From a virus: a stretch of 61,720 nucleotides of DNA. A program made the translations under genes and the position numbers. A model generated the notes under the pieces. The model was given only the letters and a program-made list of their open reading frames with translations, was not told the origin of the DNA and searched no databases. The stretch lies in the IMG/VR virus record IMGVR_UViG_3300035438_000178, positions 1-61,720 of that record; one strand, 5' to 3'. Below, in pieces: positions 7,720 to 59,500 of the stretch (position 1 is the stretch's first letter; each line of letters starts with the position of its first letter).

Positions 7720-7731
7720 CCAAAAAAGAAA

Positions 7732-7748: not shown

Positions 7749-7772
7749 CTTATAAATCAGAAAAAGAACCTG

Positions 7773-8603
7773 TTACAGTCGGTCAAGCTGTTCTTGCAAC
7801 TCATTGAAGACAATAGAGCCTTTGTCAGTCAAACAGAATCTAGTCATCACCTCAACAGTATCCTGACCAGCAGGAGAAGCGAGAATCAAACGATTGCTGT
7901 CATACCAATACATACCATCAGGCTTAGCGTTAAGAATCTGGAATTCAACGCATTGCATAACGATAGCTCGTGCCTTAACAGATGGGCTGTCAAACAACTC
8001 CATAAACTTAGCAGGATTTGCCTTAGCCTCTTGGAGCAATTCACGACGAATCTCGATGTTCTTTTGATTGGTGTTGATTCCCAAAGACATAGCAACAGGA
8101 AGCAATTCGTCAATGGACTTGTCACGAACCAAGATGACAGCATCCAACTTAGCGAATTCGTCTTCTACTTCTTTCTCAGCCTTCTTATCGTTCTCAAGAA
8201 CTCGGAATACACCACCTCCATTTGCTAAGTTAAGAGGGTGCTTATCAAGGTATTCTTGAAGATTCTTACGTTCTGGACCAACAATCAATTGACCCTCGTA
8301 GAAAACAACCTGCTCACGAAGAGCATCTTTAGGCTGTTCATCAGTAAAGATTGAACGCTCATTTGGGCAATAACGGATTGCTCGGTTATAACCTTTTGTT
8401 TCGTCAAAAATTGAAAAGTCGTGTTGTGGGATACGAAAAACAATACCTCCGCTACTTTCAATAACGTAGATTTTTACTTTGCTTACTTGTTCTTCTATTT
8501 CTTTGTTGCGACGTACTACACGTGCAGATTGAGCAGATACAACTGAAGGGTCAGTTAGAATATCGGTCTGCTCCACCGAGGTAATTGCGCGAGGGCGTGC
8601 CAT
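7773..8603 (-). CDS. Uncharacterised capsid-cluster protein, 276 aa
   Basis: It follows the major capsid gene, separated by a terminator, and ends at its own terminator, so it is a single-gene transcript. The N-terminal third is beta-rich and rich in aromatic residues (K-I-Y-V-I-E-S-S-G-G-I-V-F-R); the middle is a charged helix (K-K-A-E-K-E-V-E-D-E-F-A-K-L-D); the C terminus is a compact mixed domain. I do not recognise the family. Its position suggests a head-associated or head-completion protein. A separate transcript with two terminators implies independent dosage. Confidence 0.5.
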   Translation of the reverse strand: MARPRAITSVEQTDILTDPSVVSAQSARVVRRNKEIEEQVSKVKIYVIESSGGIVFRIPQHDFSIFDETKGYNRAIRYCPNERSIFTDEQPKDALREQVVFYEGQLIVGPERKNLQEYLDKHPLNLANGGGVFRVLENDKKAEKEVEDEFAKLDAVILVRDKSIDELLPVAMSLGINTNQKNIEIRRELLQEAKANPAKFMELFDSPSVKARAIVMQCVEFQILNAKPDGMYWYDSNRLILASPAGQDTVEVMTRFCLTDKGSIVFNELQEQLDRL

Positions 8604-8641
8604 AATTGAATGAAATTTAATTAAGAAAGAAAAAGATGAAA

Positions 8642-8661
8642 GGGGGAGCCGAAGCTCCCCC
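8642..8661 (-). terminator. Strong intrinsic terminator after major capsid gene
   Basis: Eight base pairs (GGGGGAGC with GCTCCCCC) close a tetraloop that reads TTCG on the minus strand, an exceptionally stable loop, followed by TTTCATCTTTTTC. It lies 14 bases below the capsid stop codon, as expected for the most highly expressed late gene. Confidence 0.9.
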
Positions 8662-8675
8662 AGTCATCAGTTTGA

Positions 8676-10103
8676 TTAACCGCGGAACAGTACGTGACGG
8701 TTCGCAGCGCGGGTTACCAAGTTGAACTCAGAACGATAGTTGAATTGCAAGTTATCGTCGTTCGTGTTGGTCACACCCAAGATAGAACCAGTCATCCAGT
8801 GCTCCATTTCACGGCTGTATCCGTTGGTAGCCTTGTAGTTCATTTCCAAAGCAGGAGCTTTATCTCCAGTCTTCGGGTCAGCTACGCTAATCATCGGAAT
8901 TGCAACACCATAATACTTTTGGTTGGTCATACCCAACAAGGTAGGCTCGTTCAACAATTTCCAGCCAGTTTTGTGGAAAGTGTAAGAACCACGCTTGAAG
9001 GAAGTGAATCCAAGCTTGATAGCAGCATCCTGAGCGTTGTTGTAGTTACCGAATGCTTGTCCACCAATAGTTGGATTAGCCGTAACAGTCGTAGCCAAGC
9101 CACGAGCAATCAAGTCGTCCAGATTCAAGTCTTGCTGACGGTTCAGGTACAAAGCGTATTCAGGAGAACCACCTTGCTTATCCAATTCCTTGATGATGTC
9201 ATCGAGGTCAGTCAAAGTAGAGGCATATCCGCTGTTAACGATACCACGGTCTTCGATAGCTGCGAAGTAACCTTCAGTACCAGCGATGTCACCATTGAAA
9301 TCGGCAGTCGTTGCAGTAGCAATTTCAGTGTTGGTTACTTGAGTTCCGAGAATCATCATCATCTCACGCTTGTCGAGGAAGCGCTGACGAGTGTCCATCT
9401 CAGACTTAACATACCAGCGGTAGTCACCACCACCTACGTCAATCCAGCCTACGTTGGTAGCTTGAGAACCAGTTACCTCATACTTCTCTTTAAGAATCAT
9501 ATAAGGGTTGGTACGCTTAACTACGTCGCTTTCCAAGTAACCGACGTTCTGTCCAGTTCCTTGAGCAAACATATTACCAACAATCGGCAATTGAACACCA
9601 GCAGTTGCTACAGAAGCGGTCAAACCACCAGTAGCCAAAGTACGCAAGGTTGCAGATGCAGTTGCGGCAGTGGTCAATTCACCAGTGCTGATAGCACTAA
9701 CGATTGCGCGGTCACGACCATTAATCAAAACGATGTCATTCAAACGCAGGTACTTAGCTGCTTGAGCCTTAACAGCATTCGTGTCGCCAGTAGCGGCAGA
9801 AGGCATATTGACAGTCAAGGTACGAACAGCAGTCGTAGCAGTAGCAGAGAAAGTAGCGTACTGAGAGGGGTGAAGACGAACTTCTTCCCAGTATTGTACT
9901 TCGTCAGCAACTCCGTTAGCACGGATAGAACCAGTCATCTGCAAGAAGCCCGTAATGGTTTGTGTACCATAGGTCTTAATCAGCATATCCCGGTTATCGG
10001 GCTTGTTTACTTGGTTAATAAAATCACCTAAAGAGGTGTACTTGGTTGGGTCCAAACGGCGAAAGCCATTATATGGAAACCCAGAGGGACTGTTTGTTGC
10101 CAT
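8676..10103 (-). CDS. Major capsid protein, HK97-like, 475 aa
   Basis: The size, the placement directly after an acidic scaffold-like gene and before a strong terminator, and the composition (Ala/Thr/Gly-rich, balanced charge) identify the major capsid protein. Visible segments include an N-terminal arm (residues about 1-60), a Thr/Ala-rich insertion (about 85-185) and helices near residues 255-275 (E-M-D-T-R-Q-R-F-L-D-K-R-E-M). The C-terminal part (R-S-E-F-N-L-V-T-R-A-A-N-R-H) fits the end of an HK97-type axial domain. The fold is inferred. A 445-codon open frame on the opposite strand is a codon-bias shadow. Confidence 0.8.
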   Translation of the reverse strand: MATNSPSGFPYNGFRRLDPTKYTSLGDFINQVNKPDNRDMLIKTYGTQTITGFLQMTGSIRANGVADEVQYWEEVRLHPSQYATFSATATTAVRTLTVNMPSAATGDTNAVKAQAAKYLRLNDIVLINGRDRAIVSAISTGELTTAATASATLRTLATGGLTASVATAGVQLPIVGNMFAQGTGQNVGYLESDVVKRTNPYMILKEKYEVTGSQATNVGWIDVGGGDYRWYVKSEMDTRQRFLDKREMMMILGTQVTNTEIATATTADFNGDIAGTEGYFAAIEDRGIVNSGYASTLTDLDDIIKELDKQGGSPEYALYLNRQQDLNLDDLIARGLATTVTANPTIGGQAFGNYNNAQDAAIKLGFTSFKRGSYTFHKTGWKLLNEPTLLGMTNQKYYGVAIPMISVADPKTGDKAPALEMNYKATNGYSREMEHWMTGSILGVTNTNDDNLQFNYRSEFNLVTRAANRHVLFRG

Positions 10104-31289: not shown

Positions 31290-31323
31290 TTGACAAAGGG
31301 GTTTCGATTGTTATACCTTTGCA
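31290..31323 (+). promoter_or_regulatory. Early promoter P2 (amidoligase 1)
   Basis: TTGACAA at 31,290 and TATACCTTTGCA at 31,312; 21 bases separate TTG and TACCTTTG. The flanks C-C-A-A-A-C-A-C before and T-G-T-T before the -7 box closely match P3, so the two promoters are likely duplicates. Confidence 0.85.
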
Positions 31324-31381: not shown

Positions 31382-32761
31382 ATGAAAAATGTTTTCGATT
31401 ACGAGGGTCAACAACACCCTATGTCTGAGTGTGTAGTGCTACACGAAATGAGTGACTACGGCGGTGAATATATTCACCGAGATGTGGCTGTAGCCTTCCG
31501 TCTTGATGGGGAAACGCAATACTTTACTCCGGAGGAGGCTGTCTACGACATCTACGACACCCCTGTGATGCTGAGTGACGCGGTGCTCTTAGACAGGGGC
31601 AACCACGGAGGCGAGTGGTGCGCTATGAACGAGGCTGTCCTCACTGAGGATGCCGGATGGGTTCACGTTTCCGATACTTACTACGTAAGTTTGAGCGACG
31701 GAAACACCTACTTCTATATGTGGAACTTACGAAATGTTACCGAAGGTACTGTCGCCGAAGGGTGGTACAGCGAGGACGATTGTGTCTACGTAGAGGATGC
31801 AGATGCCTACTACCACGTAGATGATGAGGGTGTGTGGTACACCTTCGATGAGCAAAATTCCGAGTATGTTTTAATCCAAAATGATAACCAAAACCCCAAT
31901 GTTATGAGCACAATGTCTACACCTACCCGCGGCATCAACACCGGCATCCGTGTCGAGGACTACCACCAAGGCCGGATGGGTTCACCTGTCCGTGAGTGGA
32001 AAGCGGGCGAGGCAAAGTTTACCATCGGCTTCGAGGTTGAAAAAGAGGACACCACACCTACGAATGTGTGGAGCGTGATTGACACCCGTGTCTACGGATG
32101 GGTTCGAGAGCGCGACGGCTCACTGAACCATATGACCGGATACGAATTGGTCTCACCTACCTACGACCTGTTCGGGTCTGAGCTCGACACCGACCTTGCA
32201 AGCGAGTGCATCACCGAGCACGTCAACGGCGCCTACAGCGAGCGCTGCGGGGGGCACATCAACTTCGGCATCAAGGGTCTGACCGGATTGCAGGTCTACG
32301 AACAGATGAAGGGCTTCACACCCCTGTTGCTGTCCCTTTACAAGGGACGTTTGCTGAATCGCTACTGCAAAATTCGTCCGGACTACAAGGACGGCAGCAA
32401 GATGGGCGCTGTGCACGTCAAGCCGGGCTTCATCGAGTACCGAGTGCCGAGTGCCGTCAAGAGCACTGAAAATTTGCTGTGGCGCCGCGATTTGCTCCGC
32501 ATTGCCGCCGAGCACGCCGGAAAGGGTGCGGCCTACTTCACCCGGGCTGCGATGACCAAATCACACCCGCTGCACAAGCACTTGCGTAAGGTCTACGACG
32601 AGCGCACAATCGCACTGCGAGTGGGCTTTGCACTGTCGCTTGCCGAGCGTATGGAGGGCAAAAAATTCTCCAACTACGTTACCTTCACCGAGGTAACCGA
32701 CATCATCGACGTCCACGCCGCGGATGTTGAGCGCCACCTACAACAGGCTGCACACCTGTAA
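31382..32761 (+). CDS. Amidoligase 1, glutamine-synthetase-fold ligase, 459 aa
   Basis: I chose ATG 31,382, about 55 bases after the P2 start; the longer open frame would begin inside the promoter. Residues 1-190 are an acidic, Tyr/Asp/Val-rich domain of unknown role. The amidoligase domain follows: F-T-I-G-F-E218-V-E220, R-D245-G-S-L, E255-L-V-S-P, C289-G-G-H292-I-N and E352-Y-R354. These match the Amidoligase_2 pattern; the family joins amine and carboxylate groups with ATP. N294 stands where the second copy has His. GC rises to about 63-65% in parts of the second half, unlike its neighbours, a sign of transfer. A G-rich hairpin follows the stop. Confidence 0.85.
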   Translation: MKNVFDYEGQQHPMSECVVLHEMSDYGGEYIHRDVAVAFRLDGETQYFTPEEAVYDIYDTPVMLSDAVLLDRGNHGGEWCAMNEAVLTEDAGWVHVSDTYYVSLSDGNTYFYMWNLRNVTEGTVAEGWYSEDDCVYVEDADAYYHVDDEGVWYTFDEQNSEYVLIQNDNQNPNVMSTMSTPTRGINTGIRVEDYHQGRMGSPVREWKAGEAKFTIGFEVEKEDTTPTNVWSVIDTRVYGWVRERDGSLNHMTGYELVSPTYDLFGSELDTDLASECITEHVNGAYSERCGGHINFGIKGLTGLQVYEQMKGFTPLLLSLYKGRLLNRYCKIRPDYKDGSKMGAVHVKPGFIEYRVPSAVKSTENLLWRRDLLRIAAEHAGKGAAYFTRAAMTKSHPLHKHLRKVYDERTIALRVGFALSLAERMEGKKFSNYVTFTEVTDIIDVHAADVERHLQQAAHL

Positions 32762-32914
32762 GGTACACGTAGGCAAGGGGGTGTGTGTAGATATACACAC
32801 CCCTACACCTACACACGTAGACATACATATCTACACATATATGCACGTCTACATACGTAGACATACACACATACACACCTACACCTACACATAAACCCAC
32901 AAACACCTACACCT
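32762..32914 (+). repeat. CCTACAC/TACGTAG-rich intergenic tract
   Basis: This gene-free stretch is mostly overlapping copies of ACACCTAC, TACACA and TACGTAG. It opens with the hairpin at 32,778-32,803 and ends with A-C-A-C-C-T-A-C-A-C-C-T directly before the next ATG. The same words precede the starts at 33,638 and 36,628. Confidence 0.7.
32778..32803 (+). terminator. Hairpin after amidoligase 1
   Basis: GGGGTGTGTGT (32,778-32,788) pairs with ATACACACCCC (32,793-32,803) over a four-base loop, 11 pairs including one G-U. No U tract follows, so it may instead stabilise the mRNA 3' end. A similar GGGGTG/CACCCC hairpin follows amidoligase 2. Confidence 0.6.
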
Positions 32915-33511
32915 ATGGCTAACATTTGCAACAACTTCGTAACGATTTCCGGCAAGCCTGAGAATATCCGAGCTGCCTACAATTTTCTCCTCGACTACAC
33001 ACCCGACCACGGCGTGATGTACGACCGACTGCGCGACCTACACCTACGTAAGGGCTACACCCTGACCCCTGAGGACAACGGCGCCGCCTCACCTGTGTGG
33101 TGGGAGTACAACGTAGAGTACACAATCGTCGACCTTGACAACAAGGTAGATGTAATTTCTGTCGTCGGTGGTTCAAAGGGAATGCCGCCTGTGGATTTCC
33201 TACGCCTACTGAGCGAGCACTTTCACGTAGATGTGAGCGCTAAGTACGAGGACTACGCCGGATTCATCGGCGGATACTTCAAGGCTGTCAACGGTGACCC
33301 TATTGTCGACGATTTCCTGAGCCTACTTGAGTACCTGTGGCGCTACGATGACGAGCGCATTGCCTTCTACGATGAACTGCATTCGCTTTGTAAGTGGAAC
33401 GACCACGGCTTCGAGGATGTTAAACGACTGCATCTGAGTGAGTTTAAAACACCACTGACCGATGATGAATTGAGAATCATTGGAAAGTATTTCGAGGATG
33501 ATGCCTCGTAG
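32915..33511 (+). CDS. Api92-like/DUF1281-type protein, 198 aa
   Basis: The N terminus M-A-N-I-C-N-N-F-V-T-I-S-G is the hallmark of the phage and mobile-element Api92-like ferredoxin-fold family. The middle has P-V-W-W-E-Y-N-V-E-Y and the C-terminal half is acidic and helical. GC is high (around 55%), like the adjacent amidoligase 1, so they may have arrived together. The role is unknown; position between amidoligase 1 and the GATase makes it a candidate substrate or partner. Confidence 0.65.
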   Translation: MANICNNFVTISGKPENIRAAYNFLLDYTPDHGVMYDRLRDLHLRKGYTLTPEDNGAASPVWWEYNVEYTIVDLDNKVDVISVVGGSKGMPPVDFLRLLSEHFHVDVSAKYEDYAGFIGGYFKAVNGDPIVDDFLSLLEYLWRYDDERIAFYDELHSLCKWNDHGFEDVKRLHLSEFKTPLTDDELRIIGKYFEDDAS

Positions 33512-33637
33512 GTACACACCTACACCTACGTACATACACGTAGGCACGCACACCTACACCTACGTACACATACATACGTAGGTACACACACCTACCTACA
33601 CACACATATACCTACACCTACAAACACCTACACACCT
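33512..33637 (+). repeat. Second CCTACAC/TACGTA-rich intergenic tract
   Basis: Like 32,762-32,914, this stretch consists of tandem-like ACACCTACACCTACGTA words with TACGTA palindromes. It separates the Api92-like gene from a small membrane protein gene. At least seven copies of ACACCTAC can be counted by eye. Confidence 0.7.
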
Positions 33638-33802
33638 ATGAGAAACTTACCACACTACCTTGCTTCGACCTTCACCGGATTGTCTACGTTCGCTTTTGTT
33701 TTCGCTGTGCTACACAATGAGTACACACTTGCGATTGTATCTACACCGCTTGCGATTGTATCCACACTTACACTTGCTAGCCTCGATTGGAAAAAATCAT
33801 AA
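33638..33802 (+). CDS. Small membrane protein, 54 aa
   Basis: ATG 33,638 to TAA 33,802. Residues about 8-26 and 29-49 are hydrophobic, giving two predicted helices with a short H-N-E-Y loop; the end is D-W-K-K-S. Its stop codon lies in the inverted repeat that precedes P3. It has no clear sequence similarity to the 48-aa membrane protein before P2 but holds the same position. Confidence 0.55.
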   Translation: MRNLPHYLASTFTGLSTFAFVFAVLHNEYTLAIVSTPLAIVSTLTLASLDWKKS

Positions 33803-33812
33803 CGTAGTTATG
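33798..33812. promoter_or_regulatory. Inverted repeat upstream of P3
   Basis: CATAAC and GTTATG flank GTA. It overlaps the stop codon of the preceding gene and ends 34 bases before the TTGACAA of P3, the same distance as at P2. All three early promoter repeats have a three-base spacer. Confidence 0.55.
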
Positions 33813-33846
33813 TATAGCAACAACAAAAAAATACTTCACCAAACAC

Positions 33847-33880
33847 TTGACAAGGGCATACCGAATGTTATACCTTTGCA
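33847..33880 (+). promoter_or_regulatory. Early promoter P3 (GATase and amidoligase 2)
   Basis: TTGACAA at 33,847 and TATACCTTTGCA at 33,869, with the same 21-base TTG to -7 spacing as P1 and P2. It starts a transcript with a leader of about 100 bases before the GATase ATG. A short TCGT/ACGA hairpin begins the leader. Confidence 0.85.
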
Positions 33881-33985
33881 TCGTCAAACGACAAATGTTC
33901 AACCTAATACCTGATGCTTATGTAATGTGACCTGTTCAACAAATGCTTTAATAAAAATGTATAACTTATTTAAATTCAATAGCCT

Positions 33986-34882
33986 ATGTGTATAGCAATT
34001 CTTAACAAGGGAAACGCGGTTTCCAAAAAACATCTGAAAAATTCTTGGGACTCCAACTTCAACGGCGCGGGTCTTATGTGGGTACAAGGTGGTGCACTGC
34101 ACACCTACAAGAAAGCCAACAAGCACAAATCAACTGACTTCACCGAGTTCTACGACACCTACCTACAAGCGTATGACAATCGTGACGAGAACACACCTGT
34201 GGGTATTCACTTCCGCATTGCAACGCACGGCAAGACCGACGAGTTCCTTCACCCATTCAAGGTAGGTGAGAACATCGGCCTTATGCACAACGGCATCCTA
34301 AGCGGGCTAGGTACTGAGGCGTACAGCGACACGGCTAAACTTGCCGACCTGTTGTCCGGACTGCCGGAGGTTATGCTCCAAAATGTCGACGAGTTATTAT
34401 CCAATAACTTCATCTACACGGCGCTTGCATCTATGTGTGGTACAGGTAATAAACTAATCTTTATCGACAACACCGGTGACTACGAGATTGTCAACGAGAA
34501 AGCCGGACATTGGGCTGACGATAATTGGTACTCCAACGACTCCTACAAGAACAGCGGTGTGCGCTACTACGGAGACAAGGCTGTCTACGATTGGGGAAAG
34601 GGATGGGGAAAAGCGTGGGAAAAGCCTTACACTGCATCTACACCTACGTTAGGGGCATCTGTAGGTAAGCCCTTGCCTGCATTGCCTAAGGCATCTGTGC
34701 CCTTTGTTGATGCGGATGTTGATGAGAGCATCATCGATGATACGGATACCAAATCATTGGGTACTTTTTGGTGTAGCAAATGTTACAGCACTGAGTACGT
34801 TACCGATGCCTGTGAGTGCGACCGATGCGGAACCTACAACTACCGGGCTGAGACCGCTGTGTGTGGGTTACTGTACTCGTAA
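33986..34882 (+). CDS. Class II glutamine amidotransferase, 298 aa
   Basis: The protein starts M-C2-I-A-I, so Cys2 becomes the N-terminal nucleophile after Met removal. H-F-R-I-A-T-H-G and L-M-H-N-G-I-L are the conserved Ntn-amidotransferase motifs that bind glutamine and form the oxyanion hole. Residues about 200-250 are a Pro/Ala/Asp-rich linker, and the C terminus holds a four-plus cysteine zinc-ribbon-like module (C263, C266, C276, C278, C281). It would hydrolyse glutamine or a gamma-glutamyl amide. It lies between two amidoligase genes, so it may supply ammonia or edit their product. No synthase domain is fused. Confidence 0.85.
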   Translation: MCIAILNKGNAVSKKHLKNSWDSNFNGAGLMWVQGGALHTYKKANKHKSTDFTEFYDTYLQAYDNRDENTPVGIHFRIATHGKTDEFLHPFKVGENIGLMHNGILSGLGTEAYSDTAKLADLLSGLPEVMLQNVDELLSNNFIYTALASMCGTGNKLIFIDNTGDYEIVNEKAGHWADDNWYSNDSYKNSGVRYYGDKAVYDWGKGWGKAWEKPYTASTPTLGASVGKPLPALPKASVPFVDADVDESIIDDTDTKSLGTFWCSKCYSTEYVTDACECDRCGTYNYRAETAVCGLLYS

Positions 34883-34935
34883 TGTTCAACCTATTGTTTA
34901 ATCGAATTGTCTAACTATTTAATCCTTAATGTATT

Positions 34936-36576
34936 ATGATTCACAATGTTAACTTCCTAGCTCCCAACTTCGGCCTCCCGGAGGACTTGTTCAACTACTA
35001 TACAGATGAGTGCCTTCGGCCTTACCTACGTAACCTTAACACACGTTATCAAGCATCTAGCAATGGTACTTATGTTCCGTTACTGCCGCCTATTCATACG
35101 GCAAAAAATTTCTCAGTAAATAGTGATATGAGGTCTCAGTACCAACGTACAGGTGGTACTCTATACAAGCAAGCAGATATGACGGCTGATGCCTATGCGT
35201 ATGGCTCAAATGTGCGAGCTTCATTTAAGGGACAATCATCGCCTTTGCATTCTTCTATGTGGTGTTGGAGCGTATATGACTTGATGATTCCGTGGACTAA
35301 ATTCATAAGCCACTTCAATAATCTTGGTGAGTCAGTTATTTTTACAGCGGGCAGAGAAGACAATCGCATATACCTACCTATCGCCTCAAAGTTCCCGCAA
35401 TTTGATAGTAGGCATTGCATTGCAAGCCCTAGTGTATCTGAGGGTGTTGAGCGACTGAATGGGTGGGGATACATCTACAAAAATCTTAATGCTCCTCGTG
35501 GTGTATTGAGTATGTTTAACGAGCAATACCTACGTGACATTGGAGGGTTCGATGAGGCAACAGCTGAGGATATTCTTTCTATGGCGAATGCTACTGCCTT
35601 CTTCGTAGAGAATAATTCTATATCCTGTTGCCTTTCCTCATCTATGCCTGAGGAATACATTGATGACAGCGAGGATGTGTTCGATATGGACAGCCCTGAT
35701 ATGCAAGCACGTCTAGGTATACCACAAGCGGAAGAAACGCCTCCTGTTCTTGAAGTGCGTTCCTACAAGGGATTCAATCGGGTTCACAAGGCAAGCAAGA
35801 AGGCTAAGTTCACTATCGGATTCGAGGTGGAGAAAGAAGATTCATCTGTCCGCCGTTCTGTTGATGCCGACCTGTTGTACAACACTACACGGTGGGCTAA
35901 GGAGCGCGATGGTTCGCTGAGTAGTTACTCCGGTTACGAATTGGTCTCACCTACGTATGACCTGTACACCAATGACTTGGACAACGACCTGAAGAACAGC
36001 GAGGACTTACGTAACCACATAGATGCACAATACAACACAGGCTCTTGCGGTGGGCACATACATCTAGGCGCCACAGGTGTGACGGGTAAACGATTGTTCC
36101 AAATGATGGGGCCGTGGATTCCGCTTATCTACTCACTGTATGTGGGGCGTATCAACGGACGGCACTGCAAGGTGAAGAAGAATGAGAATATCATTCGTGA
36201 CGATGAGAAATACCAATCGGTTCGCATCTTTGACAATCGCGTCGAGTTACGTATTATAAGCGCTGTGCCTGATGTAGACACGCTGTTGTGGCGCCGCGAT
36301 TTGCTTCGTCTTATTTGTGACAACTTGAGTGCTACTCCGTTCACTATCCTTGCGATGATGCACGACAAGCGTTCGAAACTACACAAGCACTTGCGTAAGC
36401 AATACAGCGCTACCAACTTGGAGAAGAAAATCCAATTGTATGTGTACTTCGCTAACCAATTGTTGAGTTCCGACTACACACGATTGGAGAAACGCATTCC
36501 TGAGTGGGAGCGTATGTTCACATCTGAGCAGCGTTCACACCTCCGTGCTCACGGTTTCTCTAACTATGTATCTTAG
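34936..36576 (+). CDS. Amidoligase 2, 546 aa
   Basis: Residues 1-280 are an N-terminal domain unlike that of amidoligase 1, with aromatic-rich segments (S-S-M-W-C-W-S-V-Y-D-L). The catalytic domain has F-T-I-G-F-E297-V-E299, R-D325-G-S-L, E335-L-V-S-P, C371-G-G-H374-I-H376 and E437-L-R439. The two catalytic domains share these motifs and the L-L-W-R-R-D-L-L-R segment, so they are paralogues. GC is nearer the genome average than in copy 1, so the duplication is old or the copies came separately. A GGGGTG/CACCCC hairpin follows. Confidence 0.85.
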   Translation: MIHNVNFLAPNFGLPEDLFNYYTDECLRPYLRNLNTRYQASSNGTYVPLLPPIHTAKNFSVNSDMRSQYQRTGGTLYKQADMTADAYAYGSNVRASFKGQSSPLHSSMWCWSVYDLMIPWTKFISHFNNLGESVIFTAGREDNRIYLPIASKFPQFDSRHCIASPSVSEGVERLNGWGYIYKNLNAPRGVLSMFNEQYLRDIGGFDEATAEDILSMANATAFFVENNSISCCLSSSMPEEYIDDSEDVFDMDSPDMQARLGIPQAEETPPVLEVRSYKGFNRVHKASKKAKFTIGFEVEKEDSSVRRSVDADLLYNTTRWAKERDGSLSSYSGYELVSPTYDLYTNDLDNDLKNSEDLRNHIDAQYNTGSCGGHIHLGATGVTGKRLFQMMGPWIPLIYSLYVGRINGRHCKVKKNENIIRDDEKYQSVRIFDNRVELRIISAVPDVDTLLWRRDLLRLICDNLSATPFTILAMMHDKRSKLHKHLRKQYSATNLEKKIQLYVYFANQLLSSDYTRLEKRIPEWERMFTSEQRSHLRAHGFSNYVS

Positions 36577-46755: not shown

Positions 46756-46831
46756 GTTTGATTTAATACGAGAATCTATAATTGAATTTAACGAAACGGA
46801 TGGTAACAGTAGTACACATAGACGGCCTTAA
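46589..46831 (+). CDS. Small acidic protein overlapping rusA, 80 aa
   Basis: A helical protein with L-I-N-L-Y-E-E-L-H-D-E-Q-G and F-D-L-I-R-E-S-I-I-E-F-N-E, ending N-S-S-T-H-R-R-P. It overlaps the basic tail of rusA by 167 bases in another frame and the glycosyltransferase start by 32. Its composition looks like real protein, so overprinting is likely. Confidence 0.5.
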   Translation: MTPTELSNCYLIAVKRLQESLINLYEELHDEQGSPLPSLGKAEILFGEFRKDAKIEFDLIRESIIEFNETDGNSSTHRRP

Positions 46832-47762
46832 TGGTATTAACTACCATAGGCTTATGGTTCCCTTGTTGCGGTTGACGCAAAATGGATTTAACTTCCATTG
46901 GATTCAAAAGATAAGTGAACTTAAGGATATGGACCTAGATAAGGTTGATAACCTTATCATTTCAAGGATGGCTCGAATCGAAGGACACGCAGAATTTAAG
47001 CGTATGCTTAAAGACCACGGCGTTAAATTGATTCTAGACAATGACGACTATTGGGAACTTGCTAAGCATAACCCAGCATTCTTTGCGTATTCTACAGATA
47101 TACGTCATCACATCAAGAAAACAATCAAGATTGCTGACGTGATATGGACTCCATCTCCGGCACTTGCTAAAGAGATGCAGCGTCTTAACCCAAAGGCTCA
47201 GATTGAGATAGTAAACAACGCTATCAATGAGTACGAAGACCAATGGGCTAATTGGAAGAAAACATCAGGTAGACAGCTTCACTTCGGGTATCTTGGGGCT
47301 GCTGCTCACAACAAGGACGCTAGGCTTATGAAGTACGAGTTCTATGGAAAAAACTTTGCTTGTCTACGCAAACTTGGGTACGAGCGAATCTTCAAGCCTA
47401 ACAAGGTGTGGCATCCAAAGGAGATTCAAGAGTATGGAGAGTTCTATCGTGAGATTGATGTATCTATCGCACCGCTTGAAACAACTCTGTTCAACCGATG
47501 CAAGAGTGACTTGAAGGTAACCGAGGCAGCTTGGACACGAACTGCACTTATTGCCTCAAATACAACTCCATACAAGGAGGTGATTAAGAATGGTGAAACG
47601 GGAATCCTATGTTCTACTCCACAAGAATGGAGAGAAGCAATAGAGTCAATGACCAAGAAGCGAGCACAGGAACTTGGGCATAACCTATATGAAGACCTAA
47701 AGAACAGCCCTAATCACAACCTTGACTTAGTTAATCAGAAACGAATTAAATACCTAATCTAA
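46800..47762 (+). CDS. Glycosyltransferase, GT-B family 1/4-like, 320 aa
   Basis: The N-terminal Rossmann half has V-V-H-I-D-G-L-N-G-I-N-Y-H-R near residue 4 and L-I-L-D-N-D-D near 75; the C-terminal half has F-G-Y-L-G-A-A-A-H-N-K-D and I-A-P-L-E-T-T, followed by K-V-T-E-A-A-W, the nucleotide-sugar binding pattern. ATG 46,800 is chosen over TTG 46,782. It would transfer a sugar to DNA, a virion protein or a host glycan. It overlaps the methyltransferase by one base. Confidence 0.78.
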   Translation: MVTVVHIDGLNGINYHRLMVPLLRLTQNGFNFHWIQKISELKDMDLDKVDNLIISRMARIEGHAEFKRMLKDHGVKLILDNDDYWELAKHNPAFFAYSTDIRHHIKKTIKIADVIWTPSPALAKEMQRLNPKAQIEIVNNAINEYEDQWANWKKTSGRQLHFGYLGAAAHNKDARLMKYEFYGKNFACLRKLGYERIFKPNKVWHPKEIQEYGEFYREIDVSIAPLETTLFNRCKSDLKVTEAAWTRTALIASNTTPYKEVIKNGETGILCSTPQEWREAIESMTKKRAQELGHNLYEDLKNSPNHNLDLVNQKRIKYLI

Positions 47763-48469
47763 TGAGCGATTTTATCAAAGAGTTCGAGGATGCTGCAAAT
47801 AAGCAGACCGACAAAGTAACACATCACGGATACCAACGATTCTATCCATACTTCCTACAAAAGTTTGTAGGTAATAATCCTAAGATTTTAGAGATTGGTA
47901 TTGAGTACGGAGGTTCTATGGTTTTGTGGAACAACTATTTAAAGAATGCCACTATATACGGCATTGATATTCAAGCAAAGCCTTCAAGCTTTGAGATGCG
48001 TATGTTTCAAGCCGACCAATCCAAAGAAGAGGATTTGGAACGCGTAATGAAAGAGATTGATTCTAAGCTCGATATAATTGTAGACGATGGCTCACACCAT
48101 CCTAAGCATCAGCTAGACACATTCGTGTATCTGTTCAAGCACCTTGCTGACGGAGGAGTATACATCATTGAGGACATCGAGACCAACTACTGGAAGTTAG
48201 CCGAACTATACGGATATAATATCAACTACGGAGTAGGACATCCTGAGTCACTGATTACAATCTTCAAGACAATCTCAGATTGTGTTAACTTAGAGATTGA
48301 CAAAACTGTGCTTTCTAATGATAAGCATATCCCTGTTTCTATACAGAAGAAGATTGAAATGATAACATTTGCTCACAATTGTATCATTATCGTGAAGAAA
48401 GATGAGCGATTCAAGAAATTCTACAACCGTGACTACATCTACACCTACTTCACTTCTGACGAAGCTTGA
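47762..48469 (+). CDS. Class I SAM-dependent O-methyltransferase, 235 aa
   Basis: The SAM pocket L43-E-I-G-I-E-Y-G-G-S52 is followed by Y-G-I-D69-I, then I-V-D108-D-G-S-H-H113 and Y-I-I-E-D-I-E-T-N-Y-W. This combination is typical of sugar O-methyltransferases of the CmcI/Elm-MIII type acting on glycosides. Directly downstream of a glycosyltransferase, it probably methylates the transferred sugar. Confidence 0.8.
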   Translation: MSDFIKEFEDAANKQTDKVTHHGYQRFYPYFLQKFVGNNPKILEIGIEYGGSMVLWNNYLKNATIYGIDIQAKPSSFEMRMFQADQSKEEDLERVMKEIDSKLDIIVDDGSHHPKHQLDTFVYLFKHLADGGVYIIEDIETNYWKLAELYGYNINYGVGHPESLITIFKTISDCVNLEIDKTVLSNDKHIPVSIQKKIEMITFAHNCIIIVKKDERFKKFYNRDYIYTYFTSDEA

Positions 48470-50597: not shown

Positions 50598-53500
50598 TTA
50601 CTTTTTATTATAAAGCTCTCTGAAGGTCACATAGAACTCCTCATTAGGACGGAAACCTGTTGATTTCAGGTCTTCAAAGGCGTCATTTATCTCCTCAGAA
50701 CTCATTTTTCCAAACTTCTCGTAGAACATCTTAGCAGCAATTGTAGGCGTCTCCGCATAGCGAATGCTCAACATACTACGCTGCTCATCTGTCCGTGCCA
50801 ACTCGTAGAAATACTTGCGTGCAATACGCTCACGCTTAGCTTCAGGAAGGCTGTTAAGTACGCGCTTGATTTCAGCAACATTACGCTTCTTGGTCTTCAA
50901 CTCTTGACGAGCCAAAGATTTAATCTTTTCAGATGCAATGTAGTCCTCAGTGCCTTCCTCCAACTTTATCTCTTCAGCCTTGCTTCCCTTTTTAACGTAG
51001 TCACGCCACTTAGGACTTGTATCACGAATGAATATTTTAACAGGCGCATTCAGAGCACGGCTAACTTCCTGACTGACAACATCAGAAGCTTTGGTTTCTT
51101 TCTTCTCCTGAGACAAGTCGATATCCTCTGCGCCAACAACAGCTGCTGTTGCACGAGATGCGACATCTAAGAATCCGTAAGCAATACCTACCAAGAAGTT
51201 AGTGCTAGGCTGAGTAATAACAGATTCAACACCAGCCTTCAAGCGAGGTGCAGAGATGTCCGGAATGAACTCACTTTCAGAAGCTTTAGCAATAGCCTTG
51301 TAGAAGAACTCTACCTTATCATTCTCACGCTCCTCAGCGTATGGCTTTATCTTTCCAAAGAACTGCTCAGGTACAATAGTAGCGTTACGGAAAGAGTCGT
51401 AGTTAAAGAATGCTTTAGCGATAGCATTGAACGTAGGTATACGAGAGAACAAGTCTGAAGCATTATCAATTCCCGGAACAAAGAAGGGAACAGAGTCAGC
51501 CATATTTTCCCAAATAGCCTTAATCTCATCCTCAGAGTATCCTTTAGACTCTCCAGTATTGATGTAGTGTGCCCAAGAACGTGCAACCGTCTCTACCGCT
51601 GTGGTTAGAGGTACAAGTTGCTGTACTTTCTTAATACGCAAATACTTACGAGTACCGTCTTCATTCTTTACTGGAAGAAGGATAACGTGATAACGGTGAC
51701 GGATATATGGGTCAATATCTTCGTAGTCATCATCACTGTAGGCAAGTATGTTGTACATAACAAGACCCATAAGTCCTCCCGCATACTGAGCAAACTTGAC
51801 TGCAAAAGCTTGAGGATTGTCCTTGATTCCCTTAAATGTTGCATACGTTGCTTGGAACGCTACGTTCAAGTATGGTGAAATAGCATCCAAGTCCTTAGTC
51901 AGTGAACCACCCTTGCTGAAGTCAACAATGTCGCGAGCTTCAGCAGCAGCCATAAACTTGATTTTCTCAATGCCTTCAGCAGTCTTCGCCAAATCAGGGA
52001 ACTCTTGCTTAAGGTTCTCAATCATACGGCGATATACAGCCAATCGGAGACCAATTTCAAACGCTTCACCCGTGTAGGCAATGCCTTTTGTGAATTTGTC
52101 CCATCTTTTAGCTAGGTTGTACTCAAGTTTATTCTTGTACTTATCCTTGAATCGGTACTCAGGACGGAACTCCTGACTCATAAAGGACATACCACCTCCG
52201 TGAGCAAAGTAATCTTGCAGGATTTCCTTATCCCTCACCTTGCTGTAGATGCCATAGGAGTAATCCTTAGCCATCTTGAGCAATGCGATAGGCAAGAAGC
52301 TGTCCTTTCCGTAGACACGTGAACGTGACATAATTACGTTCAATGCTTCAGGAACAGCCAAGCCAAATCCAAACGTAGGGTTGTATCCGGTAGCAAAGAT
52401 TCTAAGGATAGGCGCACCTGCAAGAGCAGAAAGGACTTTCTTAAACCGTCCACCTAATCCAAAGAAGCTCTTGTTCATATCCTGCCACTGCTCGTACAGG
52501 TCATTACGCATCTGTACAGCGCGAAGCTTACCTCCCTCTTTGTAGTATACGTTAGTGAATCCTTCATCAGCAGGGTCAAAGACTTCATTACCATACTTAT
52601 CAGTAGCAACATCACCATTTGACAGAGTTTTGTTGTTTGCCTTACGCAACCACAAAGCATTGTCAGGAGTAGTTCCCTTAGCTAATTCAGCAGTAGCAAT
52701 GTTCTCAAAACGCTTAGCCTCAGCAGCTTTGAATGCGAAGGACAACAGCATCTTAGAGTCCATAAGCAAATTCCCTTCGCTACCTTCTTCGATAGCCTTC
52801 AGGACATCTTGCTTAAGTCCAGTTCCGGCGCGCTCAAACACCTCATTATCAAGATTCTCGAAAATCTTTTCAATGAATTTACGAGGCTCGTAATCGTCCT
52901 TGATGAATCGCTCTAAAGTCTGTTCATCAATCAAACCGTTTTGGTAGTACGAACGCAGAATGTTTCTGAACTGGTCAAAATACGCATCTGCATACATATT
53001 CAGCTCGTTGAACTTGCGGTTACCAAGCTTTCTTTGAAGAGCACCAGTAGCTTGAATACACTGCTCAGCGTTCAATCCCTTAGGATGCTTTGGACGGACA
53101 GCATACTGCTCAACACGCTCTTTTAGTGAATCAAGTTCAGCCTTTGCACGAATCAAATCATTCTCAAGAGAGGCAATAGCCTTCTTATCAGGCTTAGCCT
53201 TCTTCTTTTCCTCGCGGATTAGAGCATTCGTAATTGATTTAGTTTCATCGTAGTTGTTCCGAGCATTTTTATAGCTGTCCTCTGTCGCCTTCTTGCGCTC
53301 ATCCCAATTAGAATCAATCTGAATGATACGACGCATCAAGATTAACTGGTCTAAAAGCTCAATATCTGCCCGGCTAAGTTTACCATAGATAGCATTCTCA
53401 GCCTTCTCAAACAGATACGTAGCATTAGCAAAAGCTCCAGCACGCAACGTGAGTAGGTTTTCTGCAAACTCAAGGTTACCCTCAACCATAGCGTCACGCA

Positions 53501-56500
53501 CATCTGCCTGTCTGTCTAACCAAGCATTCTTAGAGAAGATAGTCTTCTGAAACTTATTGAATGCAGACATACGACTAGCGTACTCTTTGTCAGAGTCATA
53601 AGAAGCCTCAGCAACTTTATCCAAAGCCTTATCCTCCTTAGCCTCTTCTGTAGGGTCAAGCTTGAATTTGCGTGAAAATTTCACCGCAGACTTGGTGAAT
53701 ACTGTCTCTCCATTTAAGTTACGTAAAACTTTTGGAAAAGGTATAACCTCACCAACTTCACTATAGGCGTTAAATTGCTCAGAAAAGTCACGGACCTCAT
53801 AATAGTCCATATTTTTTGTCTCCTCTGGTGACAATATCAACCTACCATTATATTGATTAATTAATCTTTCAATATTAGCAGCTCCTGAATAACTACTTTG
53901 ATTAAAATTATCATAATCACTTTCGGTTTCCTTAGGATTCGGAACCGCATTAAAAGCATATACTGCTAAAGAATTGTCACTAAATGTTACAACGCGAGCA
54001 ATTTCGGTTCCTGACTTTAGTGTAAAACTCGGACCAACACTTCTAGCATATGCCTTGTTATATAAAATTTTTCTTCTTAAGTTATTTCCTTCAAACTGTT
54101 GAATGGTATTCATTATACCTTCAGCAATCTTTTTCTGTTCAGGTGATGATGATTTAGAATCTATTGTTTTTGTTACATTTTTTTCAAATTTCTTGTAATA
54201 AGGGTGACTTCTGTCATCCCCTGCGGCAGCAAAGCTAACTGTAGCATATTCAACGTCAGGAAACATTTTAGGGATTAATGCAACAACACGCTGAAAATTT
54301 CTAGCTGTATCTAAATAAGGAGGTACGTTAGAGTATGTGAAAATATCTGAACTAAATGCTATATATACATTTTTACCAATAGGGTCATATGTAGCATCAA
54401 TAGTATAAGTGTCTTTTAGAGTAGTGCCTTTTATATCCTCTGGTATTACATCAAGACCCAAATATGTTTCTGGAACAACCCACTCAACATCAAATGATTT
54501 TTTTCTCTGTAATTCATTACTTTGCATTTTTACTCCAGCATCATCAAGAATTGACCTGACATCAGAAACAGTAAGAACCTTATCTAAAAGTTCTTTTGGT
54601 GGTGTTCGAGATGTAGCTTTTTTAGCACTGTCAGAAATGAAATCTATTGCTTTTCCATTTACGAACGAACGCATAAATTCAGGTGAGTTAATATCTATTT
54701 GAAATAAATTTAACTCTTGTCTTCCCATTCGAAAACTTCCCGGACCAATTCCAATAAGATTAGGTGATGCGTCTGAAATTGCTTTAGAATTTGTAATCCT
54801 ATCAGGATTTGCACCACTATTACCTTCTTTAATTGCAGACTTAGCAGAATCAATCATTTCTTGAATATCGCTATGAAAGTCTAAAACTGAAGGGAACCTA
54901 GTAGGATTTAGTAAACTACTGTAAAGACTAGTAAAATGATATACAAATTTTGAAGTCTGTTCAACATAAAGAGCGAAAGCGTTAGTTACTTCAGGAGAAT
55001 CTATATCTAATCCTTCGACTTTAGAATACTCATTTTCAAGGTCATAAGTAGCTGAAACATTATATTTATCAATTCCTGCTAAACGTACTTGATTATCTGA
55101 GTCAGTACCAATATAATAGATGAAATATGTTTTTGGGTTATCCCTATATAATATAGGAAGTGTTTTTGTTTTATAAGCCTTCTCTATAGCATCGTTTATC
55201 ATATCATCATAACCACCCAGTATTGTTGAGTCATCTGGGTCATAATTAAGTGTAGCTTTAGATATTATAGAATAGTCATTGAAACTTGTTAAATTATTCT
55301 CTAGTTTGTCTTTTAAGTATTGAGAAATGATAAGTGCCCTTTGCTTTGGTTCAAGAGATACACTACCAAAAGAAGTAGCTTCAATTAGTTTATCAAAATT
55401 ATTTATATCTATTTTACTAAAAACATCAATCAATTTATCTGTTGCATCCATTTTTACGTTAAATAACTCATCAATGTCCCCTTTGAAAAAAGAACTTGTT
55501 GACTTATAGTTAAAAACAGAAGCCTGAAACTCATACATATTACTAATTAAGTTAGTACCAGAGGTAAATAAAGAACTAAGGAACAACTTTGCTTCATCAC
55601 TGAGACGTTTTATCCCAAAGTCGTATCCTCCTACAGTTCTTGACTCATTTAAAGCATCATCATAAGCCACTACATCAAGCTGAAGGCCTTGATAAGCAGC
55701 GTCAGTGTTGACCATTTTAGAAGCAATAATGTCCTGTAATGTATCAAGAGTAGTCTTATATGCTTCAGTTGATAAAGAAGGCAATTCAGTATTTTGCTTG
55801 ATTATCTGTGATAAATCATCAAGTCGTGACTTTACATTAAAGTCCTCAATAGACAGATTAGTTTTCTCTAACTGTTCATTAAACTCTTTTATAGATTCAT
55901 CAACTATTGCTTTTACTACCTTATTATTGTTTACATCATCATCACTGTAAGTCAATGAATACTCAGCTAAAGCATCTGAGATAGCTATGTAAGCAAGCTG
56001 AGTTTTGGTTTCTATGTTAGCCGTATTTAAGAATTTGCCGAACTCTAAATTCTTTATGCCAGTTGCAGCGCGAGCAGAAGCAACTTCTAACAATTTTTCA
56101 TAAGATGCTCTTGCAATAGACAAAAGACCATCACCTTCAATATTCTTTCCGCTTACAACTCTGTCAATTACAGATGAATAGAACTGCTTGTTACGTTGTT
56201 TTACAATGTCAAAAAACAATGCACCATAAGAAAACATTGCTTGGTCCCTGCTTTTTGCATCTGCATTTACAAATACTACCTTATTAGTTGGTTTGTCTAA
56301 ATCAATGTCGTAACCTTTTGATTTAAAAAACTCCAATGCTTCCTTGCCATATTTTACACCAAGCATTTTTTTGAAATCATCCAAGAACTCAACCTTAGAT
56401 GTAAAATCAAACTTTGCTGTGTCAGACTTGACAAAAATTAATGGTACATTCAATTTTTTAGCAAAGTGCTCAAGGACAGTCATTGAGTTGAGCAAAGGCT

Positions 56501-59500
56501 CAGAAACCTCATCCTGAATATTTTTTGCATCTAAAATCTCTTTTTCCATCACCAGCATAGATGGCTTGTCTTCCAAGAAACGCTGAACAAATTGAATAGC
56601 CTCAGGTTCACCAATAGAAAACTTGAGAGATTTGATTGCATTTGCTTGAGGTCCAGATTGTTTAATCTTGACAGCCTGACCAGCCTCAAAAGCTTGATTC
56701 ATAAGATTCAAGAAGTCAAACACTTCCTTCTTACTCTTCAATCTCTTCTCAACACCAAAGAACTTCAGAATATTGTTTACGAAGTCGACAATCTTCTCAA
56801 ACGTAGAAGTCTCAGGCTTGATTTGGTTGTACAGCTCAGGCTGAGAGAATTGAGCAACAAACTCAACAAAAATCTCCTCCATATCTGCATTGTTGATGAC
56901 TTGACGCATCTTACGTGCAGCAGCAGTACGAGACAACTCTTCAGGAAGAGTGTCGATAATGTCCATAATGATACGCGAGGCACGGAACTGGAATGTCCGG
57001 TCTTCACGTGAAATAGCATCAAGGATAGGGTGAAGGATTTCGTGACGAATGACACGCATTTGGTCTTTCGCAATCTGTCCATTCATATCAGGAGTCACCA
57101 ATACGTGGATTTGCTTATCCTTCGCATTGTAGTATCCTTCAATTTCGAAATCAGGTCGCTCAGCAAGGCTCTCGTAAAGAGACTCCTTATTGTAGTGCAA
57201 CACAAGATTTACATCAGGAAGGACAGAATATAAGGTGCTCAAGTAGCGATTGATAACCTCGGCAGTCTTCTTGTTGAGACGCTTAGATAGGTTACCAATT
57301 CCAATAACTTCAACATCACGGGCAGCAACAGCCTCCTCCTTTGTTTGAACTTCAGGACGTGGTTTTGCTGGTACTTTGGTTTTCTTCTCGACCTGCTTAG
57401 TAACCTTCTCGTAGGCTTGGTCAAACTCATACTGAGGAATAGCTCCAAGCTGACGAATCTTGCCTTCAATGGCTAAATCCATAGCAAGGTTTAGGTCAGA
57501 AGTAGTTGGTTTTCCAAGTACAGTTCGCTCCGAACGGTTACGAATGGTAATGGTACGAGCAGATACAGGCTGTCCCTTAGGGGTAGCGCTGCGTACAACT
57601 ACACCATCAATATTACCGAACTCATCAAGTGATGATTCAACGTATTCGATAGCATCATAGTTAGGGAATACGCCTTTCTCACGGCCTACTTCTCTCTTGC
57701 GCTTGAATACAACAACATCAACAGTTCCGTCTTCTTGAACTTCTAGATAGGAGCGTTCTCCGGGCTTTTCATTTCCGGTTGAGACTGGGGCATAGTTGAC
57801 TCTTTCGCTGAGGTTGAGTTTGCCTTGCGGTTTGACGCTAATTTTTGGAGTTCGTTTAGGAGCTCCAACTGGGACTTCCGTGGTAACTTCCTCAGTTGTA
57901 ATAGCTGTTTTGTTGTCATAATAATCGATTTCGTTGAATTTATCAGTAAGTACATCGGTGTATACCTGCTTTTCATCCTCTGGAATATCTAATGCTTGAA
58001 CTTCATCAATAGCTTGGATAATCTGTTCCTGAGCTGTATTGGCATCATTAATGTCGACTTCCTGATTCTGAGCCATTGCTTCAAAAACAGGTAAAGCATC
58101 AACACGAGTAGCAATCTTGTCAGCGTCAGTTTCTACTTTGACTTCTTCGCCAGTTTCTTGAACCACTCCACCTGCTTGAGGCGCTGCTTGGCCTCCTTCA
58201 GTGACAGGTTCGACTTTGACAGGGGCTTGCCCTCCTTGCTCTGGACTTGGTACTTGCCCTTTTTCGAGATTATCATACTTGTACTTTTCAGTAATGTTCT
58301 TAATCTGAGAGTATGTGTCGAGCATTTGCGTCTTCATAGAGTCACGAACCTCATCGTTCGTGCTTTCCATCCGAGACTTAGCAAGTTGCTCTAAATCAGA
58401 ATTCAAGGCATAGACCTTTGCTTGGTCATCCTTAGTCATATTCTCAAAGAAGGCAACACTTGATTTGACTTCTCCGTCACGACGCTTAGTCAAGTCTAAA
58501 ATGTCTTTGGTAAGTGCATAACGCTCCTCAGGAGTTTGAGCCTCCGACATTGCATTACGCTTGACTTCTAGAGCCTTATTAATTTTTGTTACTTCAAAGT
58601 TTCTTCCAATACGACCAGCTAGGTATACAGGTGTAGATGCAGTAGCACCAGCACCAGTAATAATACCAGCCATACCTAAGCCAGCAGCTCCAGAACGAAC
58701 AGCAGCCTCAATTATTCCACTAGCTGTTACCTCTTCTCCTTTTGCTGCGTTATCAATAACGTATTGAGATGCACCAGTAAAAGCTTCACCAAGTGATTCT
58801 TCAGTTAAGTTTACAGCACCCCCCTTAATAAGGCCGGTAAAATATTCGTTAAATGTTTTCTTAGCAGCAGCCTTTCCTCCAGCGTCAACAACTCCACGCA
58901 TAGCACGAGTAAGTACCCTTCCTCCAACAACCTCTCCGACAGCCTCAGTAGCACCCATTGCTGAAACATAGCCTAATGCTTCAACATCAGACATATCCTT
59001 GAACCACTTCTCATTTTTGACATCGCCATAAGATTGAGCAGCGGAAAGAGCAGCCATAGTAGCATAAGATGCAGCCGGGCCACCAGCGAAATTGGCAGCA
59101 GCTGCGATACCCATAAGTGGAGCACTTTGGGCTGTGGTATTCAGCGCTATGCGTGCAGCATTAGAGAAGTCACCATCGGTAAGAGCATCATAAAAATCTT
59201 GCTCAAACTTAGTCGTATTCAAATTGAATTCTTTCTGCTGAAGCTGTCTGCTAGACTCAAGCGGGAGTCCGAATGAATCAACCTCTACTCCTATAGCTGA
59301 ACGAATACCATAATCTAAATTACCTATACCTGATGCAAGGTTATAAACAAAGTCCTTGAATATGTTTTGGTCATTGTAACGCTTGTCTCCACTCAAATCA
59401 AGAGAAATTCCTTGATTTATAAACAAGTCATTCTCAACTTTCTTTAGATACTCTTTGTCGTTTCGCTTATCCTCAGGGAGTTTGTCAAGAATCTCTTGCT

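What the first reader, a model, noticed from the sequence alone, without database searches (positions are those of the whole stretch)
31382..36576. Two amidoligases around a class II glutamine amidotransferase, each cassette with its own promoter
Both ligases keep the GS-fold motif set (G-F-E-x-E, R-D-G-S-L, E-L-V-S-P, C-G-G-H, E-x-R), and the amidotransferase between them keeps Cys2, H-N-G and the zinc-ribbon tail. Amidoligase 1 differs at N294 where the second has H376, so the copies may have diverged in substrate. The set suggests ATP-driven amide bond formation (for example gamma-glutamyl or isopeptide links) with an editing or ammonia-supplying partner, aimed at host protein, cell wall or a small molecule. 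I do not know a described phage system with this exact gene order.
Basis: partly seen in the sequence, partly recalled or inferred. Interest (0 to 1): 0.88.

Follow-up and report, generated by a model that had tools for sequence, protein, structure and literature searches.

The report
Phage amide-ligase and glutaminase gene cassette
A virus of Bacteroidota-type bacteria carries two glutamine-synthetase-like bond-making enzymes around a glutamine-splitting enzyme, a variant of a known but biochemically untested phage cassette thought to alter the infected cell, and its relatives in bacteria sit on mobile elements beside anti-phage genes.

Summary
Window 31382-32761 (lig1) and 34936-36576 (lig2) encode homologous GS-fold ligases (44% identical over the catalytic domain). 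AlphaFold models are confident in that domain, and the PDB matches are led by GS, YbdK and GmaS. Between them, 33986-34882 encodes a class II glutamine amidotransferase (GAT) with its catalytic residues invariant in 31 relatives. Two near-identical Bacteroidota-type promoters precede lig1 and GAT.

The order lig1-GAT-lig2 recurs in seven other viral loci. Each ligase forms its own clade, and their split predates the trio. Ligase-GAT linkage holds in 44 of 50 ligase loci; the six exceptions run off a contig.

The kind is known: amidoligase + GAT (+ second amidoligase, ATP-grasp, gamma-glutamyl cyclotransferase) is the 'peptidoglycan modification cassette' of phiEco32/LUZ24/RIO-1-type podoviruses, never tested biochemically as far as I found. 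This is a divergent, reduced variant; the ATP-grasp and cyclotransferase searches found nothing in the window.

New here: bacterial ligase-GAT pairs sit on mobile elements beside anti-phage systems (Qat, short Argonaute, Gabija, type IIG). In one pair of elements ligase-GAT is shared while the defence cargo differs. Function remains inferred.

The parts
31290..31321 (+). promoter-like site P1 (TTGACA-18-TACCTTTG), 92 nt upstream of lig1
   Evidence: Bacteroidota -7 TAnnTTTG per PMC7366714
31382..32761 (+). amidoligase 1 (lig1): N-terminal degenerate beta-repeat region (aa 1-205) and GS-fold catalytic domain (aa about 209-440)
32762..32914 (.). CACCTACA/ACATAC low-complexity tract left of the DUF1281-like gene
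32915..33511 (+). DUF1281/Api92-like protein, inserted between lig1 and GAT only in this phage; probably incidental
   Evidence: Pfam PF18406 E 0.0069 (below cut-off); not at this place in kin
33512..33640 (.). CACCTACA-type tract right of the DUF1281-like gene
33847..33878 (+). promoter-like site P2, 139 nt upstream of GAT, copy of P1
33986..34882 (+). stand-alone class II (Ntn) glutamine amidotransferase with C-terminal Cys-rich tail
34936..36576 (+). amidoligase 2 (lig2): lineage-specific N-terminal region (aa 1-270, unmodelled) and GS-fold catalytic domain (aa about 287-530)

Best explanation
This is a phage early-region amide-bond cassette. Two ATP-dependent GS-fold carboxylate-amine ligases (lig1, lig2) work with one stand-alone class II glutamine amidotransferase. 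Proposed mechanism: the amidotransferase's N-terminal Cys attacks glutamine and releases ammonia. A ligase, after phosphorylating a gamma-type carboxylate with ATP (as glutamine synthetase, GmaS and YbdK do), joins it to ammonia or an amine. lig1-GAT is the ancestral pair; lig2 is an older paralogue with a different N-terminal region and the canonical H-x-H motif, probably acting on a second substrate of the same pathway. The most likely target is a glutamate-containing peptide of the host envelope (peptidoglycan stem peptide or similar), altered so that competing phages are excluded. Basis of each step: homology, GS fold, intact catalytic residues, gene linkage and promoters are shown computationally; ATP use, gamma-glutamyl chemistry and ammonia transfer follow from the families; the envelope target and superinfection exclusion are inference, resting partly on a literature hypothesis. 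My confidence by step: enzyme classes 0.9; the proteins act together 0.85; ammonia supply rather than deglutamylation 0.5; envelope target 0.35.
For: GS fold: catalytic-domain pLDDT mostly above 90; Foldseek hits YbdK 1r8g 2.6e-4, GS, GmaS 9qur 3.4e-4 and Dop/PafA; VIA Z 9-10 over about 160-195 residues for the best rows, all 50 listed entries GS-family. Profile-profile match to bacterial ligases, one of which passes the Pfam Amidoligase_2 cut-off: 98.2%, E 3.2e-14, with E-x-E, DGSL, E-[LI]-V, CG-x-H, R and E-x-R in register. Amidotransferase: C2, R77, T80, H89, N102, G103, D115 invariant in 31/31; GATase_6/GATase_4 hits in relatives; GlmS glutaminase E 1e-3. Linkage: 44 of 50 viral ligase loci have the GAT nearby; the six without run off a contig end. 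Trio order in L004-L009 and L011. lig1 clade 100/99 and lig2 clade 97/96; the trio GATs group with GATs of lig1-type single ligases, 96/93. Gamma-glutamyl chemistry: in MW202828, a TerL relative of this phage, the GAT is fused to a gamma-glutamylamine cyclotransferase domain (PF06094, 7.5e-18) and follows a ligase; 11 of 32 ligase-bearing records encode PF06094. Published cassette and envelope hypothesis: PMC5498523, PMC10580990, PMC3890496.
Against: No biochemistry exists for any relative that I found. The searches for PF06094, PF08443 and a StenR_269-type ATP-grasp found nothing in the window, so this is not the full published pathway. No substrate evidence points to peptidoglycan. Ligase matches to Pfam Amidoligase_2 stay below the curated cut-off. 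A class II amidotransferase could hydrolyse a gamma-glutamyl product rather than feed ammonia.
Confidence: 0.5

Rival explanations
1. The amidotransferase works in reverse of the ligases: ligases attach gamma-glutamyl groups and the Ntn enzyme removes them, as EgtA and EgtC do in ergothioneine synthesis (protect, process, deprotect) or as an editing or reset activity.
For: Some class II amidotransferases act as gamma-glutamyl hydrolases (EgtC; general knowledge, papers located but not read). The GAT is stand-alone and, in MW202828, fused to a gamma-glutamylamine cyclotransferase, which also destroys gamma-glutamyl amides. PMC5498523 lists the phage amidotransferase among degradative enzymes.
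Against: The glutamine-binding set R77/N102/G103/D115 is fully canonical, and the best PDB profile hit is the GlmS glutaminase domain, neither of which demands a new substrate.
Confidence: 0.3
2. The cassette modifies an intracellular target (host or phage protein, or a nucleotide signal) as counter-defence, instead of the envelope.
For: Bacterial ligase-GAT pairs lie on mobile elements next to QatBCD, short pAgo/REase/TIR, Gabija, type IIG RM and other systems; in L057/L058 an 83%-identical block with recombinase, ligase and GAT ends just after GAT, where the defence cargo differs. The fold family includes the protein tagger PafA.
Against: Position in a defence hotspot is equally expected for a protective envelope modifier or passenger cargo; the association rests on few loci; no target motif or tag protein was seen.
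Confidence: 0.2
3. Only one of the two ligases is catalytic; lig1 has lost the second histidine of H-x-H and serves as scaffold or regulator.
For: lig1 has N (orthologues N, G or S) where lig2, bacterial relatives and YbdK have H.
Against: All other invariant catalytic positions (E218, E220, D245, E255, H292, R323, E352, R354) are kept in lig1 and its clade; lig1-type ligases are the sole ligase in many phages, so they must do the work there.
Confidence: 0.1

Closest known systems
Peptidoglycan modification cassette of podoviruses (phiEco32, 7-11, RIO-1, PSA-HP1, LUZ24/PaP3/tf, PA11, CW02)
   Same: amidoligase(s), class II glutamine amidotransferase, early region amid DNA metabolism genes; PSA-HP1 also has a second amidoligase (PMC5498523; UFV-P2 gene table)
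   Different: no ATP-grasp or gamma-glutamyl cyclotransferase found here; the two ligases flank the amidotransferase; proteins below curated family cut-offs; Bacteroidota-type host
Pfam Amidoligase_2 (PF12224) + GATase_6 pairs in OM43 and other phages (MEP401/402)
   Same: same gene pair, ligase overlapping the start of the amidotransferase; MEP402 GAT 38% identical to the window's
   Different: single ligase, different phage family
YbdK / gamma-glutamyl-methylamide synthetase / glutamine synthetase
   Same: fold and order of catalytic motifs
   Different: about 11-15% identity, extra N-terminal regions, dedicated amidotransferase partner
MurT-GatD and EgtA-EgtC
   Same: ATP-dependent carboxylate ligase paired with a glutamine-amidotransferase-type enzyme, as functional analogues
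   Different: MurT is a Mur ligase and GatD a class I GATase, so an analogy only; EgtA/EgtC was compared from general knowledge, not aligned here

Membership tests
Phage peptidoglycan-modification (amidoligase) cassette | GS-fold amidoligase | tested here: met
Phage peptidoglycan-modification (amidoligase) cassette | class II glutamine amidotransferase next to it | tested here: met
Phage peptidoglycan-modification (amidoligase) cassette | second amidoligase | tested here: met
   homologous to the first, relation to the second amidoligase of PSA-HP1 not tested
Phage peptidoglycan-modification (amidoligase) cassette | gamma-glutamyl cyclotransferase | tested here: not met
   PF06094 not found in G000 while found in 11 of 32 records searched; other cyclotransferase families not tested; window may be incomplete
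Phage peptidoglycan-modification (amidoligase) cassette | ATP-grasp enzyme | tested here: not met
   StenR_269 ATP-grasp protein and PF08443 not found in G000; other ATP-grasp families not tested; window may be incomplete
Phage peptidoglycan-modification (amidoligase) cassette | acts on peptidoglycan | not testable with these tools
   no biochemistry; in the sources read the envelope role is a proposal credited to Iyer et al. 2009, a paper not held here
Pfam Amidoligase_2 (PF12224) | score above curated cut-off | tested here: not met
   lig2 17.2 of 22 bits, lig1 no hit; 18.4 bits in genome search
Pfam Amidoligase_2 (PF12224) | homology to bona fide members | tested here: met
   hhalign 98.2%, E 3.2e-14 to alignment A7, of which L058 scores 39.7 bits for PF12224
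Class II (Ntn) glutamine amidotransferase | Cys at position 2 after initiator Met plus R, T, H-P, H-N-G, S-D-T motifs | tested here: met
PF14395 COOH-NH2_lig | score above cut-off | tested here: inconclusive
   no hit in any record or control

The most novel reading that the evidence does not exclude
The ligase-amidotransferase pair is a host-protection module in its own right, carried both by phages (as superinfection exclusion) and by recombinase- or conjugation-borne elements in anti-phage hotspots: a chemical, amide-bond-based anti-phage system not yet catalogued, of which this phage has a two-ligase version with diverged substrates.
Probability: 0.2. Interest if true: 0.72.

Novelty: new variant of a known kind. 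Interest (0 to 1): 0.46.

Why it matters
Phage amidoligase cassettes are widespread, yet I found no report that any has a known substrate. This variant reduces the set to three proteins, shows by phylogeny that the two ligases have been kept apart, and links the pair to bacterial mobile elements with anti-phage cargo, which gives a direct experiment: does the pair alone, expressed in a bacterium, block phages? A yes would turn an annotation-only gene set into a defined chemistry.

Tried and rejected
(1) tblastn of lig2 against 50,697 phage records: no match; of lig1: only MW202828 is meaningful. (2) Scan of 84,980 bacterial/archaeal genomes with the ligase profile A4: no confirmed relative; the GAT profile found 20 bacterial loci. 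(3) About 390 further Bacteroidota genomes carried no GAT at E 1e-15, so bacterial copies are rare. (4) Sigma-70 consensus scan: fewer matches than shuffles; the Bacteroidota consensus was the right one. (5) One long reading frame, L071, that seems to join ligase and GAT was rejected as a fusion: the GAT starts at its own Met-Cys, which Ntn chemistry needs, and the joining stretch looks like another frame. (6) A functional role for the DUF1281-like gene inside the span: absent there in all kin. (7) PDB sequence search with the ligase profile: nothing credible. (8) The N-terminal regions were poorly modelled and were not searched on their own; their fold is not claimed to be new. (9) The same promoter pattern upstream of the trios in kin: no consistent match in a simple scan, so the promoter pair is shown for this phage only. 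(10) DUF1281-like gene against the DUF1281 genes downstream of lig2 in kin: no detectable match.
Full report
CHECK OF THE OBSERVATION. The three reading frames exist as stated. lig1 31382-32761 (459 aa) and lig2 34936-36576 (546 aa) match each other at E 5.5e-49, 44% over 220 residues. The motifs are in place: GFEVE, ERDGSL, ELVSP, CGGH, E-x-R. The amidotransferase (33986-34882) keeps Met-Cys2, H75-F-R77, T80, H89-P, H101-N-G, S114-D-T, invariant in 31 relatives. The Cys-rich tail is real and common among close relatives but missing in others. Two promoter-like sites of the Bacteroidota type (TTGACA, 18 nt, TANNTTTG) lie 92 nt before lig1 and 139 nt before the amidotransferase, in a 93-nt repeat 72% identical. 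Three such sites occur in the window against 0.36 expected; the -7 consensus is that of PMC7366714. A fourth gene, DUF1281-like, sits at 32915-33511 between low-complexity CACCTACA tracts and is not at this place in relatives.

WHAT THE PROTEINS ARE. Pfam gives only sub-threshold Amidoligase_2 for lig2 (17.2 of 22 bits) and nothing for lig1. AlphaFold models of both have catalytic domains mostly above pLDDT 90. Foldseek and VIA-align match them to the GS superfamily: E. coli YbdK, glutamine synthetases, gamma-glutamyl-methylamide synthetase, Dop/PafA; Z 9-10 over 160-195 residues for the best rows, every listed VIA entry being GS-family. A profile comparison with bacterial ligases, one of which (L058) passes the PF12224 cut-off, gives 98.2%, E 3.2e-14 with catalytic motifs in register. 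Amidotransferase relatives score for GATase_6 and GATase_4 and the profile hits the GlmS glutaminase domain. The N-terminal regions are poorly modelled. That of lig1 carries repeated DD-x2-Y-x-E...YYH-x-DD segments; in bacterial relatives the N-terminal region is a run of CxxC fingers, so the phage version may be a degenerate form (inference).

HOST AND PHAGE. TerL is about 41% identical to Flavobacterium elemo phages and 48% to MW202828; the promoters are of Bacteroidota type. The phage is a roughly 60-kb podovirus-like genome with ThyX, ERF and a DnaB-type helicase.

CONSERVATION. Fifty viral loci encode a ligase relative. Forty-four also encode the amidotransferase nearby; the other six (L010, L012, L044, L048, L049, L050) run off a contig end. 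The order lig1-GAT-lig2 is kept in L004, L005, L006, L007, L008, L009 and L011 (L006 and L007 are near-duplicates). lig1 sequences form one clade (100/99) and lig2 another (97/96); lig1 groups with ligases that stand alone beside an amidotransferase in other phages (98/94), and the trio amidotransferases group with the amidotransferases of those phages (96/93). So the two ligases separated before the trio lineage diversified, both have been kept, and lig1-GAT looks like the older pair. After CGGH-I, lig2 has H in 7 of 7; lig1 has N in five, G in one and S in one. Bacterial relatives and YbdK have H, so lig2 keeps the canonical state.

LINK TO GAMMA-GLUTAMYL CHEMISTRY. In MW202828, a TerL relative, the amidotransferase is fused to a gamma-glutamylamine cyclotransferase domain (PF06094, 7.5e-18) directly after a divergent ligase. 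PF06094 is found in 11 of 32 ligase-bearing records, often 6-10 kb downstream, but not in the window. L008 has a second amidotransferase 35% identical to that of MW202828. Stenotrophomonas phage StenR_269 carries a fuller set, as annotated: cyclotransferase, amidotransferase, GS-like ligase, ATP-grasp, amidoligase, second amidotransferase. A StenR-type ATP-grasp and PF08443 were not found in the window.

BACTERIAL RELATIVES. A scan of 84,980 genomes with the amidotransferase profile gave 20 loci; most have an amidoligase immediately upstream. They are rare and mobile. Chitinophaga eiseniae has the pair between an N6-methylase fragment and conjugative-transposon tra genes. In two Ignavibacteria genomes an 83%-identical block containing a serine recombinase-like gene, an ATPase-like gene (both named from sequence by eye), ligase and amidotransferase ends about 65 bp after the amidotransferase; beyond it one has QatBCD and the other TIR, short Argonaute and REase-PNTD genes. 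Others lie near a type IIG enzyme (L060), Gabija (L069; GajB located, GajA in the pooled set), an Argonaute-like gene (L062) or PDC-S06 (L071); AbiE genes were also in the pooled neighbours. Ten control regions from three of these genomes gave scattered single-gene hits and no complete system. The sample is small and not matched: a lead, not a statistic.

KNOWN KIND. PMC5498523 describes a peptidoglycan modification cassette in PSA-HP1, RIO-1, phiEco32, 7-11, PA11, tf, MR299-2, LUZ24, PaP3 and CW02: a gamma-glutamyl amidoligase, a second amidoligase, an ATP-grasp enzyme, gamma-glutamyl cyclotransferase and glutamine amidotransferase, proposed to prevent superinfection. PMC3890496 shows the genes in UFV-P2; PMC10580990 the amidoligase-GATase pair in OM43 phages. 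PMC11318856 speaks of the phiEco32 amidoligase as modifying cell-wall receptors, citing Iyer et al. 2009; that source (not held) is cited elsewhere as a suggestion.

MECHANISM. Shown: homology, fold, intact catalytic residues, linkage, promoters, ancient paralogy. From family knowledge: ATP-dependent acyl-phosphate chemistry on a gamma-type carboxylate, and glutamine (or gamma-glutamyl amide) cleavage by an N-terminal Cys. Inferred: ammonia is passed to a ligase; the target is a glutamate-bearing envelope peptide; the effect is exclusion of competitors. Rivals are removal of gamma-glutamyl groups by the amidotransferase, and an intracellular counter-defence target.

VERDICT. Real, well conserved, of known kind, with a new arrangement and an unexpected mobile-element/defence context in bacteria. 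Interest 0.46; the more novel reading (an uncatalogued amide-based anti-phage module) gets probability 0.2 and interest 0.72 if true.

Noticed in passing
L057:558-6781 and L058:572-6784 (Ignavibacteria MAGs): 83%-identical mobile-element block (serine recombinase-like, ATPase-like, amidoligase, amidotransferase) whose defence cargo differs: QatBCD in one, TIR + short pAgo + REase-PNTD in the other, starting about 65 bp after the amidotransferase.
   Followed up: partly
L054:9001-10215 (MW202828): Class II amidotransferase fused to a gamma-glutamylamine cyclotransferase domain (PF06094) and a Cys-rich tail, directly downstream of a divergent amidoligase.
   Followed up: partly
window 32762-33640: DUF1281-like gene bracketed by CACCTACA/ACATAC low-complexity tracts on both sides, found between lig1 and the amidotransferase only in this phage; it looks like a relocated or inserted gene.
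   Followed up: partly
L008:4873-9953: Four-gene version: lig1, amidotransferase, lig2, then a second amidotransferase-like protein whose C-terminal part resembles a worn-down cyclotransferase domain by eye.
   Followed up: partly
L070:5032-9384 (Brachyspira): One amidotransferase with three amidoligase genes (ligase-GAT-ligase-ligase).
   Followed up: no
L029:7521-8909: Ligase reading frame split in two (7521-8423 and 8427-8909), a frameshift, stop or sequencing error.
   Followed up: no
window 46782-48469: Glycosyltransferase (group 1) followed by a CmcI-like methyltransferase in the same phage; possibly another surface or virion modification.
   Followed up: no
window 50598-60149 (minus): Single 3183-aa open reading frame in the late region, not identified.
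   Followed up: no
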